NCBI RefSeq assembly: GCF_003182275.1
Contig: NZ_QGTR01000003.1
Coordinates: 1-64,000 of the forward strand
Reading direction: 5' to 3'
Length of the DNA: 64,000 bases
Origin: Hoeflea marina
GTDB taxonomy: Bacteria > Pseudomonadota > Alphaproteobacteria > Rhizobiales > Rhizobiaceae
Shown: positions 13,582 to 21,943 of the stretch, piece by piece
Layout: each line of letters starts with the position of its first letter
How positions within the stretch are numbered: the stretch's first letter is position 1
Notes under the pieces: model-generated
Database searches by the model: none
The model's input: only the letters and a program-made list of their open reading frames with translations
What the model was told of the DNA's origin: nothing
Translations under genes and position numbers: made by a program

Positions 13582-14628
13582 ATGAGCCTATACGAAGAGC
13601 ACGGAGGAAGTCTCCCCGGCGGCCTGGAGCCGCTGAGCCCTTCGGACAAGGCCGCCGCGGTGCTGCTTGCCATGGGCAAGCCGGTGGCCGGCAAGCTCCT
13701 CAAGTTCTTCGAATACGAGGAACTCCAGGCCATCATCAAGAAGGCGCAGACCTTGCGGTCGATCCCCCCGCAGGAACTCGTCGCCCTCGTCAACGAGTTC
13801 GAGGACCTCTTCAGCGAAGGCGCCGGACTGATGGACAACGCCAAGGCGATGGAGGGCATTCTCGAGGAAGGCCTGACGCCGGACGAAGTCGACGGCCTGC
13901 TCGGGCGCCGGACCCAGTTCAAGGATTACGAGACGTCGATCTGGGAGCGATTGCAGGATGCCGATCCGGTGCGGATCAGCCGCTTCATCGAGAAGGAGCA
14001 TCCTCAGACCTCCGCCTACATCCTGTCGATGCTGCCGTCGGCCTTCGCCGGCAAGCTTCTCATGCAGCTTCCGGACGCCAACCGCGTCGACATCGTCCAC
14101 CGCGCGGTCAATCTGAAGAAGGTCAATCCGCGTGCCGCCGAGATCATCGAATCGCGTGTGCGCGACCTGGTCGCCGAAATGGACGCGGAGAAGACTAACA
14201 CCGGCACCGTGCGCGTGGCCGACATGATGAACGAGCTGAGCAAAACGGATGTCGAGACCCTGCTGGAGCAGCTGCAGGCTGTCAGCGTCGCCGATGTCGA
14301 GAAGGTCAGGCCGCGCATCTTCCTGTTCGACGACATCGTGCTGATGCCGCAGCGCAGCCGCGTCACCCTGTTCAATGACATCTCGGGCGACGTCATCACC
14401 CTCGCCCTGCGCGGCGCGGACAATGCACTGTGCGAGTCAGTGCTGTCGGCCATCGGAGCGCGCCAGCGCCGCATGATCGAGTCCGATCTTTCCTCCGGGG
14501 CCGCCGGGGTCAGCATCCGCGAGATCGCCGTGGCAAGGCGGACCATCTCGCAGGAGGCCATCCGTCTTGCCGGGCTTGAGCAAATCACCCTGCGCGAGGC
14601 CGGAGCACCGGCCGCGCAGGCCGCCTGA
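13582..14628 (+). CDS. fliG: Flagellar motor switch protein FliG
   Basis: FliG links the MS ring to FliM and takes the torque from MotA. The 348-residue protein has the N-terminal FliF-binding domain beginning LSPSDKAAAVLLAMGKPVAG, the middle EHPQTSAYILSMLPSAFAGKL stretch (EHPQ motif) and a C-terminal charged helix region. The start ATG at 13582 lies 2 bases after the fliN stop. Confidence 0.97.
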   Translation: MSLYEEHGGSLPGGLEPLSPSDKAAAVLLAMGKPVAGKLLKFFEYEELQAIIKKAQTLRSIPPQELVALVNEFEDLFSEGAGLMDNAKAMEGILEEGLTPDEVDGLLGRRTQFKDYETSIWERLQDADPVRISRFIEKEHPQTSAYILSMLPSAFAGKLLMQLPDANRVDIVHRAVNLKKVNPRAAEIIESRVRDLVAEMDAEKTNTGTVRVADMMNELSKTDVETLLEQLQAVSVADVEKVRPRIFLFDDIVLMPQRSRVTLFNDISGDVITLALRGADNALCESVLSAIGARQRRMIESDLSSGAAGVSIREIAVARRTISQEAIRLAGLEQITLREAGAPAAQAA

Positions 14629-14642
14629 CGCTCTGACAGCTC

Positions 14643-15734
14643 ATGGCGGACGATGCTGACAAGGACAGCAAGACCGAGGAGCCGACCGAGAAGAAGATCC
14701 GGGACGCGCTCGACAAGGGCAACATCCCGTTCTCCCGCGAAGTTCCTTCCTTCGCATCCGCGCTCGCAATCCTCGTCTATCTGGTCTTCTTTCTCCCCAA
14801 TTCGGCGGGACACTTCGCCGAGTCGCTGCGCGATGTCTTCGAGAAGGCGGACGGGTGGAAGCTGGAAAACGGCGGCGACGCCATGTTCCTGTTCCAGAAC
14901 CTGTTCTGGGCGGCTTCGGGGGTGCTGCTGCCGGCACTGGCGCTGCTGATGACATTCGGCCTGGCGGCATCCGTGCTGCAGAACATGCCAAGTCCTGTTC
15001 TCGACCGGATCCAACCTAAACTCGAGCGCATCTCGATCGGCAAGGGATTCGGGCGGATCTACAGTGCCAAGGGCATGGTGGAATTCGGCAAGTCGATGTT
15101 CAAGATCATCGTGGTCTCCATCGCCATCGTCGCCGTCATGAAGAACGAGTATCTGGCGTCGCTCGCTTCCATGTTCGCCGATCCGCAGACCATCGGCGTC
15201 GAACTGTCGCGGATGGCCGGCAAGATCGTCGTGGTCATCATCATCGCCACGGCGACACTGGCCATCGCCGACCTGTTGTGGACCCGCTACAGCTGGCACA
15301 ACGACCTGAAGATGAGCCGCCAGGACATCAAGGACGAACACAAACAGTCCGACGGCGACCCGATCATGAAGGCGCGGCAACGGTCGCTCGCCCGAGACCG
15401 GGCGCGGCGGCGGATGATCTCGGCGGTGCCGCGGGCGACGCTGGTGATCGCCAATCCGACGCATTTCGCCGTCGCGCTGCGCTACGTTCCGTCCGAGGGC
15501 GGCGCGCCGGTGGTGGTGGCCAAGGGCACGGATCTCATTGCCCTCAAGATCCGCGAGATCGCGGAGGCCAACGGCATTCCGGTTTTCGAGGACCCGCCGC
15601 TCGCGCGATCCATGTTTGCGCAAGTCTCGGTCGATAGCTTCATTCCGCAGGTGTTTTACAAGGCTGTCGCCGAACTGGTTCACCGAATCTATGCCAAGAA
15701 GGCCAAACCTAAGCGTGAGGGCAGTCCCCAATGA
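14643..15734 (+). CDS. flhB: Flagellar export gate protein FlhB
   Basis: FlhB is the specificity-switching component of the type III export gate. The 363-residue product has the N-terminal signature [19 protein letters not shown], four hydrophobic segments, and the autocleavage motif NPTH (in [14 protein letters not shown]). The C-terminal cytoplasmic domain includes [10 protein letters not shown]. It starts 14 bases after fliG. Confidence 0.98.
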
Positions 15735-16186
15735 AGCCATGTCCTTTTTCCGGTGACCGGGAGAAGATTGTCGCGGACGCAATGTGCCCGGTGGCAAGCG
15801 AACTGCGGCTGATCGAAGTCGCCGACCTGATCGCAATGCTGCGCTTCGAGCGGCACGCCGACCTTGATGATCTTGTGACCTCCGCTGCCGAGCTGTATTT
15901 CCTGCCCGGCACGGTCAAGCTCGGCATCGGAGGCGACTACAAGCTCGACTGGCGCGGCAATGCGCGGGTCGTGCTGGACCTCGAGATCAAGCCGATGGGC
16001 GTCACCGTCTATGCAAGGCTGACTCTCGAACATGACTGCGCAGGCGTGGAAATCGATCACATCGCCTTCGAGAGGCCGAGTGACGATCCGGTGCTGAACA
16101 CGGCATTCCTGGAGGAAACCCTGCATGCGGCGGCCTACAAGCCCATCCGCGCGGCGGTGGCGGCAAGGAGCGGGGCCGCCGCCTGA
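15731..16186 (+). CDS. Conserved unknown protein at end of flhB operon
   Basis: The 151-residue soluble protein has no domain that I recognise. It overlaps the flhB stop by 4 bases, so it is almost certainly co-translated with flhB. Sinorhizobium has an unknown gene (the SMc03017 position) between flhB and visR, which makes it a conserved resident rather than a chance frame. The middle is beta-rich ([20 protein letters not shown]), with no signal peptide or membrane segment. Confidence 0.8.
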
Positions 16187-16304
16187 GGCGCGGTTCGCCT
16201 TCGGGATTGCCCTGCGTTGTGGCCGCAGCAAAGGCGCCGAAGCGTCGACCGCAACGGACCTGCCGGGCGGCGGTCGAAGTGCGGTTCGCCCCTCCGGATC
16301 TCCA

Positions 16305-16359
16305 GCTTGCCGCATCGTCCCGCGACGGAGCGAGTTTCGACCGGTGTGGAAATCCTCTA
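16305..16359 (-). repeat. Repeat element copy 2, overlapping the visR stop
   Basis: On the minus strand this runs from the visR TAG stop for 55 bases. Its 29-base core (16305-16333) lies 24 bases past the stop, the same spacing as the copy behind fliP (1064-1118). The two cores match at 25 of 29 positions. The most conserved part is CGTCGCGGGAC-ATGCG. It may be a terminator or 3'-UTR element, or a dispersed repeat that has landed next to two stops. Confidence 0.55.
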
Positions 16360-17097
16360 TCCGATCAGGCCGATGCGGATCGCCTTGGCGATGGCCTGGA
16401 TCCGGTTGACGGCGTCGAGCTTGGTGGTTGCCGAGCCGAGATAGGCATTCACGGTGTGCACGGAGAGATTCAGCGCATCACCGATGGCCTCGCTCTTCAT
16501 GCCGTTGCCGACGAGCTGCAGACATTCGATCTCGCGGGCGTTGAGGCTTTCGGGCGCCGCGATCGAGCCGAATTCGAGCTTCAGTGCCTCGCGCATGATG
16601 GAAAACGACTTGCGATGCAGGTCGATGAGGATGTCGGCGCTGAGTTCGAGCCGCTCGGCAAAGAAGACCGTGTAGCCGTTGCCCATGGCTCCCAGCTGCA
16701 CGGGGAACGCAATGCCTGTCCGGCTGTCTGCCGGGTCGCTGGCCGACGTGTACCTGGTCGCGAACAAAGGCCTCGCTTCGCCGCCGGCCAGAATGACAGG
16801 ATGGGGCGAGACCCGCAGATGCGACAGCAGCTTCGGTCCCTCGCTGGCAATCAGGTCCGACACGAGCGACCCCTCGGTTCCCGGCGGACCCTCCATGACG
16901 ACCGACAACTGGCCCGGACTGATCAAGGTGGCCGCGCGGGCAGACAGGACGGCGAACGTGGTCGCCGCCATGGCCCTTTGCATCGCCACCAGGCGGGGAT
17001 AGAGATCGGCCGTGGAGCCGCTCATCCTGGGGGTTGGACCGCCGAACCGGTCGGTCTCTTTTTCATTCGCCGTGCCGGCTTGCCCACCCAGTTCCAT
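16357..17097 (-). CDS. visR: LuxR-family flagellar master regulator VisR
   Basis: VisR and VisN act together as the master activator of flagellar and chemotaxis genes in Sinorhizobium and Agrobacterium. I start the gene at ATG 17097 because a GGAGGGG ribosome site lies just upstream. The 246-residue protein has an N-terminal sensory region and a C-terminal LuxR/GerE helix-turn-helix with LNAREIECLQLVGNGMKSEAI and the recognition segment LSVHTVNAYLGSATTKLDA. It lacks the conserved acyl-homoserine-lactone pocket. visN ends 16 bases upstream. Confidence 0.9.
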   Translation of the reverse strand: MELGGQAGTANEKETDRFGGPTPRMSGSTADLYPRLVAMQRAMAATTFAVLSARAATLISPGQLSVVMEGPPGTEGSLVSDLIASEGPKLLSHLRVSPHPVILAGGEARPLFATRYTSASDPADSRTGIAFPVQLGAMGNGYTVFFAERLELSADILIDLHRKSFSIMREALKLEFGSIAAPESLNAREIECLQLVGNGMKSEAIGDALNLSVHTVNAYLGSATTKLDAVNRIQAIAKAIRIGLIG

Positions 17098-17113
17098 ATC
17101 TATCCCCTCCGAC

Positions 17114-17866
17114 TCAGATGATCCGGTTGCGAACAGCGAACGCAACCGCTTCAGACCGGGTCTTGGCGCCCGTCTTGTTCATGATGCTGGTGATGTAATT
17201 GTTAACCGTGTTGCGGGAGATGCCGATGATGACGGCGATCTCGTCGCTGGTCTTGCCCTCGCCGATCCAGGACAGGCATTCGATTTCGCGGTCGGTCAGA
17301 TCGGCAACCAGACCGGATCGCGCCGTGATGTCGGGAAAATAGGCCGTGTGGTAGGCGCAGGCGAGGGCCGCGTCCCGCAACCGATCGTGCGAGAGAAAGA
17401 CACCCTCTTCGAAAAGCAACAGCAGCACCATCCGTGCCTCCCCCGAATTGTAGGGAAGCAGGCAGATCCGACGCGACAGGCCGGCAGGAAACGGATGGGA
17501 GGGATCACCCTCTATGAAGGAAGGCTCGAAGGCCGCCAGACAGCGGCGGAACTCGCTGTTCCGGGCATGGGCGTTGACCAGGGAAGCGCCGAGGGTCTTG
17601 ACCAGGTCGAACGGCCAATCCGAAGTCACGACAAAATCGAAATTCCGGTCGGAATGGAGGTCGTAGCGGGCAATCATGTAATGGCGGGCCGAAACATAGG
17701 CGCAGATCAAATCCATGCCCGAAGCGATATGGCCACATTGTCGTCGCTGTTCGAGATCTTCCAGCAATACACCGCGTGTTGTCACAAACGCCCCCGTTCC
17801 ATCAGACCCGGCAGGAATTCCGTCAGTCACCCCCGCAAAATCGGGCGCACCGAAATTCCCATCCAC
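17114..17866 (-). CDS. visN: LuxR-family flagellar master regulator VisN
   Basis: This is the partner of VisR; the two form one transcription unit. The 250-residue frame starts at a GTG (17866); no better ATG exists before the conserved part, so the exact start is uncertain. The C-terminal helix-turn-helix is canonical, with LTDREIECLSWIGEGKTSDEI and the stretch ISRNTVNNYITSIMNKTGAK. The N-terminal domain is unlike that of AHL receptors. The identity rests on synteny (visN-visR downstream of fliF in rhizobia) plus length. It is separated from luxI by 311 bases. Confidence 0.88.
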   Translation of the reverse strand: MDGNFGAPDFAGVTDGIPAGSDGTGAFVTTRGVLLEDLEQRRQCGHIASGMDLICAYVSARHYMIARYDLHSDRNFDFVVTSDWPFDLVKTLGASLVNAHARNSEFRRCLAAFEPSFIEGDPSHPFPAGLSRRICLLPYNSGEARMVLLLLFEEGVFLSHDRLRDAALACAYHTAYFPDITARSGLVADLTDREIECLSWIGEGKTSDEIAVIIGISRNTVNNYITSIMNKTGAKTRSEAVAFAVRNRII

Positions 17867-18177
17867 GAAGGCGCACGATCTCTCGCATGTACAGGCATCG
17901 TCCCCGCATCACCTGCCGCGCGAACCTCCGTAAGGGCAATATGCCCGAATCAGTTATTCATGCTAGCATTATGAGTGCCGGACAGTGAGAAATCATTGCC
18001 CCAATCTTGGACTTTACATTCCGATTTTTTTATGAAGGTGTTTTTGACGACGCCCTGTGACCATCCGGCGCCAGCATCGGCATGCGAGCCCATCCCCAAA
18101 ATCGGACCAGGGGCAATAACGTTTCACCGGTTATTAAGAGATTGAACAATATCTAGGATCTGAATAGAGGGTCCGCA
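17867..18177. promoter_or_regulatory. Divergent control region between visN and luxI
   Basis: This 311-base AT-enriched gap drives visN-visR leftward and luxI rightward. It holds a perfect inverted repeat AATAAC-N9-GTTATT at 18115-18135, centred about 53 bases before the luxI ATG and therefore well placed for a regulator-binding site. Near luxI, a GAGG ribosome site lies 9 bases before the start. I saw no classical lux box. Confidence 0.5.
18115..18135. promoter_or_regulatory. Inverted repeat upstream of luxI
   Basis: AATAAC and GTTATT are perfect complements separated by 9 bases, making a 21-bp dyad whose centre lies 53 bases before the luxI ATG. Size and position suit a dimeric LuxR-type activator site, although the sequence is not a canonical lux or tra box. 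It could equally serve visN transcription in the other direction. Confidence 0.35.
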
Positions 18178-18780
18178 ATGATACTGATCATCACACCGGA
18201 AAACAAACACTCGCATTTGAATAAAATAGAGCAGTATTTTCGCATTCGGAAGCAGATATTCTCGGACAGGCTTAAATGGGATGTCGAGGTCGACGGCGAC
18301 CTTGAATACGACAAGTACGATTTCATGCCGAACCAGTACATTCTCTCGCTGGACGACACCGGCACCGTCCTCGGCGGGCTGCGGCAGATGCGCACCACAT
18401 ACCCGACACTGACTTTCGAGAAGTTCTCGGACATGATCGCCGACCCAGCATCGGTGTTCGGGCCGGACACCTGGGAGACGACTCGCTTTGCCATCCGGCC
18501 CGAGGACAAGGACATCCGCTTTGCCAGCGGCGTCAACCGCGTGGCCATCGAACTGTGTGCGGCATCGCTCAAGGCCGGCCTGGAGAGCGGAGTGCGGCGC
18601 CATATTGCCGTCTGCGAGGAGCGGGTTATCAGATTGACGAAGGCATTCGCCATTCCCTGCGAGACGCTTGGACGCAAGACCTCGCCAGAGGGTGGCGACA
18701 TTCTCTGCGTGGGCTGGCAGGTCAGTGAGGAGTCGTTGAGCCGGCTGGACTGGGCACACCGGCAGTACGCGGCCGGGTAG
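18178..18780 (+). CDS. LuxI-type acyl-homoserine-lactone synthase
   Basis: This enzyme makes an N-acyl-homoserine lactone signal from S-adenosylmethionine and an acyl carrier protein or acyl-CoA. The 200-residue protein is full length and keeps the catalytic set of the family: Arg24, Phe28 and Trp34 (RIRKQIF, then LKWDV), Asp45 and Asp48 (EYDKYD), Arg69 (GGLRQM), Glu100 and Arg103 (WETTRFAI). The start ATG has a GAGG site upstream. Its last 59 bases overlap the end of the convergent luxR-type gene. Which acyl chain is used cannot be read from sequence. Confidence 0.95.
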   Translation: MILIITPENKHSHLNKIEQYFRIRKQIFSDRLKWDVEVDGDLEYDKYDFMPNQYILSLDDTGTVLGGLRQMRTTYPTLTFEKFSDMIADPASVFGPDTWETTRFAIRPEDKDIRFASGVNRVAIELCAASLKAGLESGVRRHIAVCEERVIRLTKAFAIPCETLGRKTSPEGGDILCVGWQVSEESLSRLDWAHRQYAAG

Positions 18781-19546
18781 CGCCGACATCGACCTCGATC
18801 AAGCCGTAGGCGATCGATTTCGCCACTGCATGGATGACATTGTGGCAGCCGAGCTTGGCACAGGCTGACTTGGTGATGGCCGAGAAGACGACACCGGATA
18901 CACCCAGCCTTTCGGCCGCGTCCGCAAAGCCCGTGCCTTCGGCCAGCAGGTTGAGACTTGCCTGCTCGAGACTGCTCAAGGCCTCCTTGCCCGGCTCGGA
19001 GACCGAAAACCCGCGAACCCGCAGGACGGAGAGATGAATGTCCCTGGCCGCCGCGCGCAGATTTTCGCGTTCGCTTTCGAAATAGGCGATGAACTGCTCG
19101 TACTCCATGTCGAAGGAGAACATCACGGAGCCTGGATGGCTTGAAAACGGCATCACCGGGAATGAGACAAAGCTGCGCCCCAACCCATACCGCCTGGCGT
19201 CGTCGACCAATCCCCTGACGGCGGAATCGCAGATCGAAATCTCGTTGAGGATGATGGGCTTTGCATCACGCATGGGTTGAGCCATCACCGGATCTATGGC
19301 GAAATAGCTCCGCAGGGCATAATTGATCAGCCATTTCCCGGGATAGGTGACGGAGACGAAGGTCTCTTCCCGGCTGCTCCCGCGCGCGTTGAACACGTGT
19401 CCGATGTGCTTGCATCCGACGGCCTTGCGCGCGTCGGTCAGTATCGTGATCACGGCGCTTTTCTGTCGGTTGGCAAAAAGCGACAAAGGGCGCACGCCGG
19501 CAAGTACCAAGTCCAAATCTGCCTCCACTGCTGCCATGGGCCGCAT
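18722..19546 (-). CDS. LuxR-family AHL-type regulator, atypical DNA-binding domain
   Basis: This is the likely cognate receptor for the neighbouring synthase. I start it at ATG 19546, giving 274 residues; an upstream GTG at 19585 is possible. The N-terminal half has the autoinducer-binding signature: YPGKW, then Tyr nine residues before the DP pair in RSYFAIDPV. The tryptophan usually found near PFxW is replaced (PIILNE). The C-terminal helix-turn-helix keeps LNLLAEG and AKLG, but the scaffold EIA and the TVxxH recognition residues are replaced by GFADAAERLGVSGVVFSA. A 24-residue tail beyond the usual GLI end is encoded over the luxI 3' end. Confidence 0.85.
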   Translation of the reverse strand: MRPMAAVEADLDLVLAGVRPLSLFANRQKSAVITILTDARKAVGCKHIGHVFNARGSSREETFVSVTYPGKWLINYALRSYFAIDPVMAQPMRDAKPIILNEISICDSAVRGLVDDARRYGLGRSFVSFPVMPFSSHPGSVMFSFDMEYEQFIAYFESERENLRAAARDIHLSVLRVRGFSVSEPGKEALSSLEQASLNLLAEGTGFADAAERLGVSGVVFSAITKSACAKLGCHNVIHAVAKSIAYGLIEVDVGATRPRTAGVPSPAGSTTPH

Positions 19547-19572
19547 GATGGTCGCGGCGCCCCATGGCACCC

Positions 19573-19591
19573 GCAATGGACCCACTATTGC
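19573..19591. promoter_or_regulatory. Inverted repeat upstream of the luxR-type gene
   Basis: GCAAT and ATTGC arms, perfectly complementary, stand 9 bases apart (19 bp in all), ending 27 bases before the preferred ATG at 19546. The position would suit autoregulation or binding of another dimeric regulator. The GTG alternative start at 19585 would lie inside it. Confidence 0.3.
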
Positions 19592-19695
19592 AGTTCGGTT
19601 CTGCTAATGAAAGTCCGTTTCCGCAATTGCCGGACGCGCTTCCACCGAAGGCGGGTTGGGCGATCTGCAGTTGTCCCGCGTGGATTGCTGCAGTC

Positions 19696-21384
19696 TCAGG
19701 CGGCGTCCTGGGTGGCCCACTTGCGCAGGATCTTGGCGGCGCGTTCCTCGTTGATCTCGACCATGCGGGCGAGCCGGCGCTCTGGACCTTCCTTGACGCG
19801 GCGATTGAACGTTCCCGATTCCTCGAGCGAAAGATCGTCGCCGCCGTCATCGTCGCCGAAGCCGAAGTCAGCGCCGAATCCTTCCATCGGCATCGCACCT
19901 GCCGCGTTCATGGCCGAGGGGCTGAAGTCCGGCAATTCCAGGCCGATATCGTCGGCCTCCGCGGTGAGCGCCTTGGTACCTGCGGTGCCGGCCGGACGGA
20001 GCAGCGGGCGGAAGCCGAACATGATCAGCAGCACGGCCACGACAATGAAGGCGAGCGCATTGATGATGGTTCCGACCTGCGCCTGCAACGCATCCATGAA
20101 GCCGGGCGGCGACGTGTCGGCGGCCAGGATCTCGCTGTCGAGGAAGTCCATTGTGGTAATCGACGCCAGGTCGCCGCGATCGGCGTTGACGCCGGCGGCC
20201 GTGTTGACGACCTGCTGCAGCTCGGCCAGGAAGGCACTGGTCTGCTCGGCCGTCGGTGCATCGCCCAGCATGGCGGCCATGCGGGCCTTGTTGACGACCA
20301 CCGCGATGGACAGCTTCTCGACCTCGTAGCTGTTGCGCACGGTCGACGTGGTCTTGGAGTTGATTTCGAAATTGGTCTGCTCTTCCTTGCGCTCGACCAG
20401 TTCGCTCGACTTCGGGCCGGCCCCGCCGCCCGCAGGCGCCTGATCGGGAATGTTCTGCTCCACGGTGGCGGGCTTGTCGGTGCTCGACTGGCTCGAGGTC
20501 TGGTTGTCGCGCGTCACCCGGATCGAGCGCTCGACCTTGGATTCGGGATCAAAGACCGTTTCCTGAATCTGCTGGCTGTCGGTGTTGACCGTGGCGGCGA
20601 CGCTGGCGCGGAAGTTCTCGACGCCCAGGAACGGCGCCAGGGCCTTGTAGATGTTGGATTCGATTTCGCCCTGCACCATCTGGACGATGTTCATGGACCG
20701 GTTGAGCGTGGAATTGGCGGGATCGTCACCGGACGCAAGCAGCTTGCCGGTGGCATCGAGCACCGTGACGTCGTCCATACTCAGACCCGGTACGGACGCC
20801 GCCACCAGGTGTCGAATCGAATCAGCGCCGCGGTCTATCAGGCTGTTGGTGGTGCGGACCATCACCGATGCGGAAGGCTTCTGCTCGCCCTGGCGAAAGT
20901 TGCCCCGGTCAGCCATGACGATGTGAACCCTTGCCGCGGTGATGCCGTTGATCGACTGGATCGTGCGCGCGATCTCGCCCTCGAGAGCCCGCACGCGGGT
21001 GATTTCCTGCATGAAGCTGGTCAATCCCAGCGAACCGACCTGGTCGAACAATTCATAGCCGGCCGTGTTGGACGAGGGCAGACCACGCTCGGCAAGCAGC
21101 ATGCGGGCCCGGCTGGTCATGCCGGCGGGCACCATGACGCTGGTTCCGTCGGAGCCGGGGGAGAAATCGATGTTCGCCTCGGCCAGCACCTGCGATATCT
21201 GGCTGACGTCTTCGCCGCTCAGGCCGATATAGAGGGTTTCCTGGGTGGGCTTGTTGAGGAAGATGGCGGCCGCGATGATCAGGACGACAGAAAGCGCGCC
21301 GACGCCGGCCAGCGCCATCAGGCGGGTCTGTCCCAGACCGGCAAGGTTCTTCCCGATCAGGGACAGCTGGTTCAACAGATTCAT
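19696..21384 (-). CDS. fliF: Flagellar MS-ring protein FliF
   Basis: FliF forms the membrane-embedded MS ring on which the basal body assembles. I start it at ATG 21384 (MNLLNQLSLIGKNL), since the upstream 75 codons of open frame are not FliF-like. The 562-residue protein has an N-terminal membrane segment (about 22-42). It has the YscJ/FliF stretch with LAEANIDFSPGSDGTSVMVP and a second membrane segment near residue 435. The C-terminal FliG-binding tail carries RMVEINEERAAKILRKWA. It follows the chemotaxis operon by about 170 bases. Confidence 0.97.
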   Translation of the reverse strand: MNLLNQLSLIGKNLAGLGQTRLMALAGVGALSVVLIIAAAIFLNKPTQETLYIGLSGEDVSQISQVLAEANIDFSPGSDGTSVMVPAGMTSRARMLLAERGLPSSNTAGYELFDQVGSLGLTSFMQEITRVRALEGEIARTIQSINGITAARVHIVMADRGNFRQGEQKPSASVMVRTTNSLIDRGADSIRHLVAASVPGLSMDDVTVLDATGKLLASGDDPANSTLNRSMNIVQMVQGEIESNIYKALAPFLGVENFRASVAATVNTDSQQIQETVFDPESKVERSIRVTRDNQTSSQSSTDKPATVEQNIPDQAPAGGGAGPKSSELVERKEEQTNFEINSKTTSTVRNSYEVEKLSIAVVVNKARMAAMLGDAPTAEQTSAFLAELQQVVNTAAGVNADRGDLASITTMDFLDSEILAADTSPPGFMDALQAQVGTIINALAFIVVAVLLIMFGFRPLLRPAGTAGTKALTAEADDIGLELPDFSPSAMNAAGAMPMEGFGADFGFGDDDGGDDLSLEESGTFNRRVKEGPERRLARMVEINEERAAKILRKWATQDAA

Positions 21385-21550
21385 TCTGTGTCCGCGCTCT
21401 TGGTTGCATTCCAGCCAGGGTGACCGGTTGGCCGAACCTAGGTGGCGAAACTTGCGCGAAGGTGGCCAGGGCAGCACGAATCGCCGGGGCGCCACGGCAC
21501 TGCGGAGTCGACCCGATGCCAGCCTGATCCGGATGCCGCCGAGCGGAGGC

Positions 21551-21943
21551 TCAGAAGAAGTCGAAGTCTCCCGATGCCTTCTGGTAGATTTCGGCTGATG
21601 GCTCGGCATGGACGTCGCTGCGCAGGCGGCGCTTCATGTCCTCGAGCGTGATCAGGTTGAGCGCCGTCGAGATGTCGACAAGATGGGCCACGTCCAGATG
21701 GCCGCCGATGCCGTCGATGAACTCGGCCAGGCCGCGGGCCTTCTGCACGGCAAGGTCAATGCCCTGCATGACGCGCATGTGCTCGGGCGATTCGAGGAAC
21801 TCCGTGGACCGGCCGTTGCTCAGCAGCGGCTCGAGGCGCTCGATGAGGATGGCAACGTCCATCAGTTCGGTGCTGACCCGTCCCAGAACTTCGTGCAGGG
21901 GTTCATCGTTGATACCGCCGGGCGGGACTGTCTTCAAACTCAT
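21551..21943 (-). CDS. cheT: Chemotaxis protein CheT (rhizobial orf9 type)
   Basis: The 130-residue protein sits between cheD and fliF, the position of the last chemotaxis gene (cheT, formerly orf9) in Sinorhizobium. It is predicted to be mostly helical, with no membrane segment. The middle has EHMRVMQGIDLAVQKARGLAEF and the protein ends in SGDFDFF, an acidic-aromatic tail resembling that of CheD next door. A role in the phosphorelay, similar in concept to CheZ, has been proposed for the family; I infer the name from position and size. Confidence 0.8.
   Translation of the reverse strand: MSLKTVPPGGINDEPLHEVLGRVSTELMDVAILIERLEPLLSNGRSTEFLESPEHMRVMQGIDLAVQKARGLAEFIDGIGGHLDVAHLVDISTALNLITLEDMKRRLRSDVHAEPSAEIYQKASGDFDFF

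What the first reader, a model, noticed from the sequence alone, without database searches (positions are those of the whole stretch)
18178..19546. AHL synthase and LuxR-type regulator inserted between visN and fliF
In Sinorhizobium and Agrobacterium, fliF is followed by visN-visR with nothing between. Here a complete LuxI-type synthase and a LuxR-type gene lie in that gap, next to the flagellar master regulators. The pair could link quorum sensing directly to motility. The two genes are convergent and their 3' ends overlap by 59 bp (18722-18780), so transcription of one gives antisense RNA to the other's end.
Basis: partly seen in the sequence, partly recalled or inferred. Interest (0 to 1): 0.8.

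Follow-up and report, generated by a model that had tools for sequence, protein, structure and literature searches.

The report
Quorum-sensing pair inside flagellar locus
A signal-making gene and its partner receptor sit beside the master switches of swimming in a bacterium of the Rhizobium family; they look like an old, mostly lost module related to an orphan regulator of Brucella, and the receptor here seems to have lost its usual way of gripping DNA.

Summary
In detail: an intact LuxI gene (18178-18780 +) and a LuxR-type gene (18722-19546 -) lie between visN and fliF, convergent, with a 59-bp 3' overlap. It is neither unique nor, most likely, a fresh insertion. The same pair, place and orientation occur in four further genomes of four other genera of the family (two named: Rhizobium alarense, Ferirhizobium litorale), with overlaps of 56-62 bp in the same phase. 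It is absent from all 16 congeners with a visN. The LuxI and flank trees agree, which favours old inheritance with many losses. The LuxR groups, fully supported, with LuxRs that sit at flhB in genomes without a clear VisN. Their slot and residue changes resemble those published for Brucella's VjbR, whose signal synthase is unknown. Six such genomes keep a LuxI of the same clade. A direct lux-box switch on visNR is therefore doubtful; other LuxRs reading the AHL, or protein contact, seem likelier. A new variant of a known kind.

The parts
18178..18780 (+). LuxI-type AHL synthase, the only Autoind_synth protein found in this genome
   Evidence: PF00765 89.7 bits; one PF00765 place in own genome; R24, F28, W34, E43, D45, D48, R69, E100, R103 invariant with three relatives
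18722..19546 (-). LuxR-type protein: intact autoinducer-binding domain, diverged HTH
   Evidence: PF03472 61.3 bits, no GerE hit at E<=1; HTH less conserved than ligand domain
18722..18780 (.). 59-bp convergent 3' overlap of luxI and luxR
   Evidence: ORF ends; 59, 56, 59 and 62 bp in the four other carriers, all 2 mod 3
17867..18177 (.). 311-bp intergenic region between the divergent starts of visN and luxI; 50.8% GC; no convincing lux box
   Evidence: promoter scan of 16300-21700 no better than shuffles
17114..17866 (-). VisN, flagellar master regulator
   Evidence: NF047402 over its cut-off
16357..17097 (-). VisR
   Evidence: NF047403 best hit, 199.5 bits, below its cut-off of 300
19696..21384 (-). 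FliF, MS-ring protein
   Evidence: TIGR00206 over its cut-off
15731..16186 (+). conserved hypothetical protein between flhB and visR; landmark of the slot
   Evidence: no Pfam hit at E<=1e-5; relative next to flhB in 19 of 20 VjbR-type loci read
13582..15734 (+). FliG (13582-14628) and FlhB (14643-15734), syntenic landmarks
   Evidence: Pfam; collinear in G066

Best explanation
This is an old quorum-sensing module of the flagellar locus: a working-looking LuxI plus a LuxR of the same lineage as LuxRs that resemble the VjbR group of Brucella/Ochrobactrum. Supported here: the pair sat at fliF|visN early in the family's history (or spread with its flanks), was lost from most VisN-bearing lineages, and is kept in five sampled genera with a conserved tail-to-tail overlap. 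Genomes without a clear VisN but with the related LuxR have it in the old slot after flhB, and one genus of these also keeps the luxI elsewhere. In the VisN-bearing carriers the LuxR keeps its ligand domain but its HTH is diverged and no longer basic. Inferred: LuxI makes an AHL; the paired LuxR binds it but no longer acts as a normal lux-box regulator. It would modulate other LuxR-fold proteins (VisN/VisR, or the genome's five other LuxRs with canonical-looking HTH) by protein contact or by taking up signal, so that cell density adjusts motility.
For: Same pair, orientation and overlap in 5 genera. LuxI clade with a clean score gap: 11 of 394 genomes at 336.9-390 bits, next 153. All 11 of these have the clade LuxR at 310-474 bits, next 95. 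LuxI tree win|(G176|(G168|(G073,G028))) agrees with the flank tree. Ligand-domain tree: 5 carriers + 17 VjbR-type against 24 other LuxRs, 100/100. L at W85 in all 22, F at G113 in 5 of 5 and 12 of 17; W and G in 24 of 24 others. G066 is collinear with the window as if visR-visN-luxI were absent. flhB-hp-luxR in 19 of 20 VjbR-type loci read. VisN (E<=1e-30) and VjbR-type LuxR not found together: 0 of 29 genomes. Published tags vjbR BAB2_0118, flhB BAB2_0120, fliN BAB2_0122. HTH less conserved than ligand domain in 10 of 10 carrier pairs, 0 of 136 VjbR-type pairs and 3 of 276 other pairs; HTH net charge -4 to 0 against +1 to +7. Five other LuxRs of this genome look canonical in the HTH.
Against: No AHL, transcript or motility data. 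Only five carriers; congruence of five tips is suggestive and transfer with flanks is not excluded. The LuxR tree puts this genome's LuxR outside a group of the four other carriers plus VjbR-type (98/91), while the LuxI tree groups the five carriers against g50 (99/97): where the VjbR-type joins is unresolved. GerE is still over the cut-off in G176 (26.6 bits, cut-off 23.5), the AF2 model still folds the four HTH helices, and HTH dN/dS in the closest pair is 0.34, not 1: the HTH may bind a different site. No Brucella melitensis or abortus sequence was compared, so the VjbR tie rests on published locus tags, neighbourhood and residues.
Confidence: 0.6

Rival explanations
1. Ordinary LuxI/LuxR quorum sensing that happens to lie here: the LuxR binds DNA at its own altered site in the 311-bp region and controls visN and/or luxI directly.
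For: Divergent luxI and visN share one upstream region. HTH helices are predicted at pLDDT 75-93 by blocks of ten. HTH dN/dS 0.34 in one pair. In S. meliloti the AHL receptor ExpR represses the visNR promoter directly (PMC5977203, passages).
Against: GerE absent or below cut-off in the window, G028, G073 and G168. Non-basic HTH; HTH less conserved than ligand domain in 10 of 10 pairs, against 0 of 136 and 3 of 276 control pairs. None of the listed palindromes recurs across the five luxI-visN regions.
Confidence: 0.25
2. The LuxI works but its AHL is read by other LuxR proteins of the genome; the paired LuxR is a decaying relic kept partly because its 3' end overlaps luxI.
For: One LuxI but six autoinducer-binding LuxRs over cut-off, five of them with canonical-looking HTH. 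In S. meliloti SinR is not AHL-responsive and ExpR reads the signal.
Against: Ligand domain keeps W57, Y61, D70, P71 in all five carriers; the ORF is open in five of five genera; ligand-domain dN/dS 0.14 in the closest pair.
Confidence: 0.3
3. Recent horizontal gain of the pair in this species.
For: None of 17 congeners has a close copy, best 32% identity. Parsimony on the flank tree gives five changes. Lower GC at the 5' end of luxI.
Against: Same site and orientation in five genera. LuxI divergence similar to that of the flanks, with congruent trees. All 722 plasmid records with a LuxI match are below 60% identity, best-ranked 31.8%. Own lineage branches outside the 16 congeners, so one loss suffices there.
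Confidence: 0.12
4. Antisense control: the overlapping 3' ends regulate each other by convergent transcription.
For: Overlap 56-62 bp in five genera, same phase.
Against: Common descent and luxI coding constraint alone can hold the overlap; the role of the published 23-bp sprI/sprR overlap is called unclear (PMC6930789, passages). Nothing here measures RNA.
Confidence: 0.12

Closest known systems
VjbR of Brucella (BMEII1116 / BAB2_0118) and the VjbR group of LuxR solos
   Same: Groups in the ligand domain with the VjbR-type proteins read here; same slot after flhB-hp once visR-visN-luxI are set aside; W85 and G113 replaced; flagellar link.
   Different: Here the LuxR has a LuxI partner and coexists with VisN/VisR; its HTH is diverged; no tetR neighbour. 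Brucella lacks LuxI homologues according to PMC12713405 (passages). No Brucella melitensis/abortus protein was compared directly.
SinI/SinR-ExpR control of visNR in Sinorhizobium meliloti
   Same: AHL signalling feeds into visNR (PMC5977203, passages).
   Different: There the AHL receptor ExpR is a separate solo that binds the visNR promoter; sinI/sinR are not at the flagellar locus (recalled).
Convergent, overlapping luxI/luxR pairs of enterobacteria (SprI/SprR and relatives)
   Same: Convergent genes with overlapping 3' ends (PMC6930789, passages).
   Different: 23-bp overlap there, 56-62 bp here; relationship not tested.
TrlR-like LuxR proteins without a working DNA-binding domain (recalled, no call)
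   Same: LuxR ligand/dimer domain without normal DNA binding would act by heterodimer or titration.
   Different: TrlR is recalled as truncated; here the HTH is full length but diverged, and a synthase is adjacent.

Membership tests
LuxI-type AHL synthases | Autoind_synth domain over cut-off | tested here: met
   89.7 bits, cut-off 24
LuxI-type AHL synthases | conserved R/F/W/D/D/R/E/R set of the active site (set recalled) | tested here: met
   R24, F28, W34, D45, D48, R69, E100, R103 present and invariant in A1; aligned with LasI
LuxI-type AHL synthases | makes an AHL | not testable with these tools
   needs bioassay or mass spectrometry
AHL-responsive LuxR regulators | autoinducer-binding domain with W57, Y61, D70, P71 | tested here: met
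   61.3 bits; all four residues in all five carriers
AHL-responsive LuxR regulators | W85 and G113 | tested here: not met
   L and F in all five carriers; W and G in all 24 other LuxRs compared
AHL-responsive LuxR regulators | GerE-type HTH over cut-off | tested here: not met
   no hit at E<=1 in the window; over cut-off in 1 of 5 carriers, G176
VjbR group | one group with VjbR-type LuxRs against other LuxRs | tested here: met
   100/100 on ligand-domain columns, 22 rows against 24; no labelled VjbR sequence was available, and the rows were chosen by their match to the window LuxR or to the G066 LuxR
VjbR group | W85I/V and G113F (PMC4338825, passages) | tested here: inconclusive
   F at G113 met; W85 replaced by L, not I/V, in this alignment
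VjbR group | neighbourhood flhB-hp-vjbR-tetR | tested here: not met
   flhB-hp present, but visR-visN-luxI lie between and fliF, not tetR, is beside the luxR; VjbR-type loci read have flhB-hp-luxR in 19 of 20 and tetR in 13 of 20
VjbR group | AHL releases the protein from DNA | not testable with these tools
   needs biochemistry
VisNR flagellar master regulators | VisN/VisR equivalog models and visN-visR order | tested here: met
   VisN over cut-off; VisR best hit but under its cut-off; order kept

The most novel reading that the evidence does not exclude
The locus keeps an ancestral arrangement in which an AHL synthase, its VjbR-lineage receptor and VisNR form one motility switch. In this lineage the receptor has given up DNA binding and passes the AHL signal to VisN/VisR by LuxR-LuxR contact, while in lineages that lost VisNR the same receptor kept its HTH and took over the flagellar regulator's slot, usually losing its synthase. 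This would give VjbR's missing synthase an identity by descent.
Probability: 0.2. Interest if true: 0.85.

Novelty: new variant of a known kind. Interest (0 to 1): 0.62.

Why it matters
VjbR is studied as a quorum-sensing regulator whose synthase is unknown (PMC12713405, passages). A related LuxR with an adjacent, intact-looking LuxI in environmental relatives makes the origin of that orphan, and the type of signal it evolved with, testable outside a pathogen. A LuxR that keeps its signal pocket but has a diverged DNA-binding domain next to two other LuxR-fold master regulators is also a clear system in which to test protein-contact quorum sensing.

Tried and rejected
Recent insertion on a plasmid or mobile element: rejected as the main view. 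No remnant of the pair in 27 empty gaps (tblastn, nothing better than E 0.2), so loss left no trace that I could see. Lux box upstream of luxI: one 7-of-8 imperfect palindrome ending at -23, not shared by the other carriers, not claimed. Promoter and terminator scan of 16300-21700: promoters no better than shuffles (1 found, mean 1.0), terminators 6 against a mean of 3.6. First control set for HTH conservation was faulty (13 ORFs, some on the wrong strand) and was replaced. One search counted only control pairs within set ranges of ligand-domain identity (77 of 136 VjbR-type pairs; 272 of 351 others, three of whose 27 proteins, L055, L056 and L062, repeat VjbR-type genomes): 0 of 349. One search counted all pairs with those three dropped: 0 of 136 and 3 of 276; the report uses. 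Control pairs are not independent of each other. YN00 dN/dS failed, only NG86 gave values. The PDB search with the model: the 50 rows shown are LuxR-type proteins; their query-normalised TM-scores are low (0.34-0.46), as a two-domain arrangement and low-confidence stretches (1-23, 70-93, 254-274) would give. First genome-contig scan with the single protein found nothing; the alignment found six loci. VisN was scored at E<=1e-30; more distant VisN-like matches (E 1e-29 to 1e-18) exist in further genomes and were not counted as VisN, so the VisN/VjbR-type exclusion holds at that threshold only. Paper searches for the pair at visN and for Ochrobactrum luxI/vjbR gave no paper that describes this arrangement in the listings and passages I saw; the library holds only open-licence papers. 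PMC8105983 (passages) reports one luxI and three luxR in Ochrobactrum pseudogrignonense, whereas PMC4338825 (passages) lists Ochrobactrum among those with solos only; I did not resolve which luxI is meant.

Full report
What is there. A 200-aa LuxI (18178-18780 +) and a 274-aa LuxR-type protein (18722-19546 -) are convergent, overlap by 59 bp and lie between visN (17114-17866 -) and fliF (19696-21384 -); visR, a hypothetical gene, flhB and fliG follow on the other side. LuxI is the only Autoind_synth protein found in this genome, which has six LuxRs with an autoinducer-binding domain over cut-off, this one included.

How common it is. In the 18 genomes of the genus, this one included, the best LuxI match elsewhere is 32% identical. 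Of the 141 of 151 relatives with some VisN match, the 30 best VisN loci were read: 27 have fliF next to visN without the pair, including all 16 congeners with a visN; the 17th congener held, G008 (77% complete), has no clear visN. The pair is present in this genome, G028 and G073. A profile of four LuxIs over 394 genomes of the family gives 11 genomes at 336.9-390 bits and then a drop to 153 bits; all 11 also have a matching LuxR at 310-474 bits, next best 95. The other six are the six held genomes of one genus, g50, one of which matches a record titled Brucella endophytica (contig length 146252). VisN at E<=1e-30 is found in 127 of the 394 genomes, all five carriers among them, so the pair at visN is in 5 of 127.

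Overlap. luxI and luxR overlap by 59, 59, 56, 59 and 62 bp in the five carriers, always 2 mod 3. The tails of LuxR end in PH in four of the five and PN in the fifth, but these codons lie opposite LuxI codons, so luxI may hold them.

Age. The flank tree (VisN, FliF, VisR; 32 rows, quick method) puts this genome outside its 16 congeners and the four other carriers in a second group; presence of the pair needs five changes by parsimony. The LuxI tree orders the carriers as this genome, then G176, then G168, then G073+G028, which agrees with the flanks. The LuxR ligand-domain tree is consistent with that order as far as resolved, but it places the VjbR-type group inside, with the four other carriers and apart from this genome's LuxR (98/91), whereas the LuxI tree keeps the five carriers together against g50 (99/97). 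I do not resolve that. I read the whole as old inheritance with many losses; transfer together with the flanks is not excluded. All 722 plasmid records with a LuxI match are below 60% identity; the best-ranked of the 20 listed is 31.8%.

Link to VjbR. In G066 the block motA-fliM-fliN-fliG-flhB-hypothetical is collinear with the window and is followed at once by the LuxR, as if visR-visN-luxI were missing; its luxI lies about 41 kb away on the contig. A search with that LuxR finds 29 of 394 genomes in five genera (g50 6, g17 7, g63 7, g134 2, g152 7) at E below 1e-56; the five carriers of the window type and three others match far more weakly or not at E<=1e-25. None of the 29 is among the 127 VisN genomes, and of the 29 only the six of g50 have a LuxI at E<=1e-25 with the profile. 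The LuxR sits after flhB and the hypothetical gene in 19 of 20 loci read, with a TetR gene beside it in 13 of 20 (g134 and g152 loci were not read). The literature gives hp-vjbR-tetR as the VjbR neighbourhood, with W85I/V and G113F (PMC4338825, passages; the strand mark of tetR in that table does not match what I see in g50 and g17), vjbR = BAB2_0118 (PMC12713405, table passage) and flhB = BAB2_0120, fliN = BAB2_0122 (PMC8781033, table passage). On ligand-domain columns, five carriers and 17 VjbR-type LuxRs form one side of a branch against 24 other LuxRs with support 100/100. All 22 have L at W85; G113 is F in all five carriers and in 12 of 17 VjbR-type; the 24 others have W and G. No sequence labelled VjbR was available, so this is a strong lead and not a direct comparison with Brucella. 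Brucella's AHL synthase is unknown and LuxI homologues are said to be lacking there (PMC12713405, passages).

The LuxR's DNA-binding domain. GerE: no hit in the window at E<=1, 17.2, 14.4 and 16.8 bits in G028, G073 and G168 and 26.6 in G176, cut-off 23.5; 55.0, 55.2 and 51.5 in three VjbR-type proteins. HTH identity is below ligand-domain identity in 10 of 10 carrier pairs (means 35.4 and 49.6%), in 0 of 136 VjbR-type pairs and in 3 of 276 other LuxR pairs. HTH net charge is -4 to 0 in carriers, +1 to +3 in 17 VjbR-type and +1 to +7 in 27 others, of which three repeat VjbR-type genomes. The five other LuxRs of this genome look canonical in the HTH (by eye). A model from three sequences still shows the four HTH helices, pLDDT 75-93 by blocks of ten (mean of the whole 69.9), and finds LuxR proteins in the PDB. 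In the closest pair (G073, G028) dN/dS is 0.10 for LuxI, 0.14 for the ligand domain and 0.34 for the HTH (NG86): relaxed, not neutral.

Mechanism. Shown: intact-looking synthase, ligand domain, flagellar context, diverged HTH. Inferred: AHL is made; it adjusts motility. S. meliloti offers a precedent for AHL control of visNR through a separate LuxR, ExpR, and VisN/VisR are proposed to be a heterodimer with unknown ligands (PMC5977203, passages). I hold the routes 'other LuxRs read the signal' and 'LuxR acts by protein contact' together as more likely than direct lux-box control by the paired LuxR.

Verdict. Real, uncommon, conserved in five genera, with an unexpected tie to the VjbR lineage and an unexpected change in the receptor. 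New variant of a known kind.

Noticed in passing
15731-16186 +: Conserved 151-aa protein without a Pfam hit at E<=1e-5 between flhB and visR; relatives (38-52% identical) stand next to flhB in 19 of 20 VjbR-type loci, so it looks like an undescribed flagellar-locus protein.
   Followed up: partly
21554-21943 -: 130-aa protein without a Pfam hit at E<=1e-5 between fliF and cheD.
   Followed up: no
own genome G000: C5:200231, C6:197471, C6:59856, C1:188153, C2:327596 (L183-L185, L187, L188): Five further autoinducer-binding LuxRs with canonical-looking HTH and no other LuxI found in the genome.
   Followed up: partly
L163-L182: VisN (E<=1e-30) and the VjbR-type LuxR were not found together in the family sample (0 of 29 genomes), as if one replaced the other in the same slot.
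   Followed up: yes
17867-18297: Local GC dip: 50.8% between visN and luxI and 43.3% in the first 120 bp of luxI, against 62.3% for the window.
   Followed up: no
L111, L112, L113: LuxI relatives 29-31% identical in two Kordiimonas records and an alphaproteobacterial bin.
   Followed up: no
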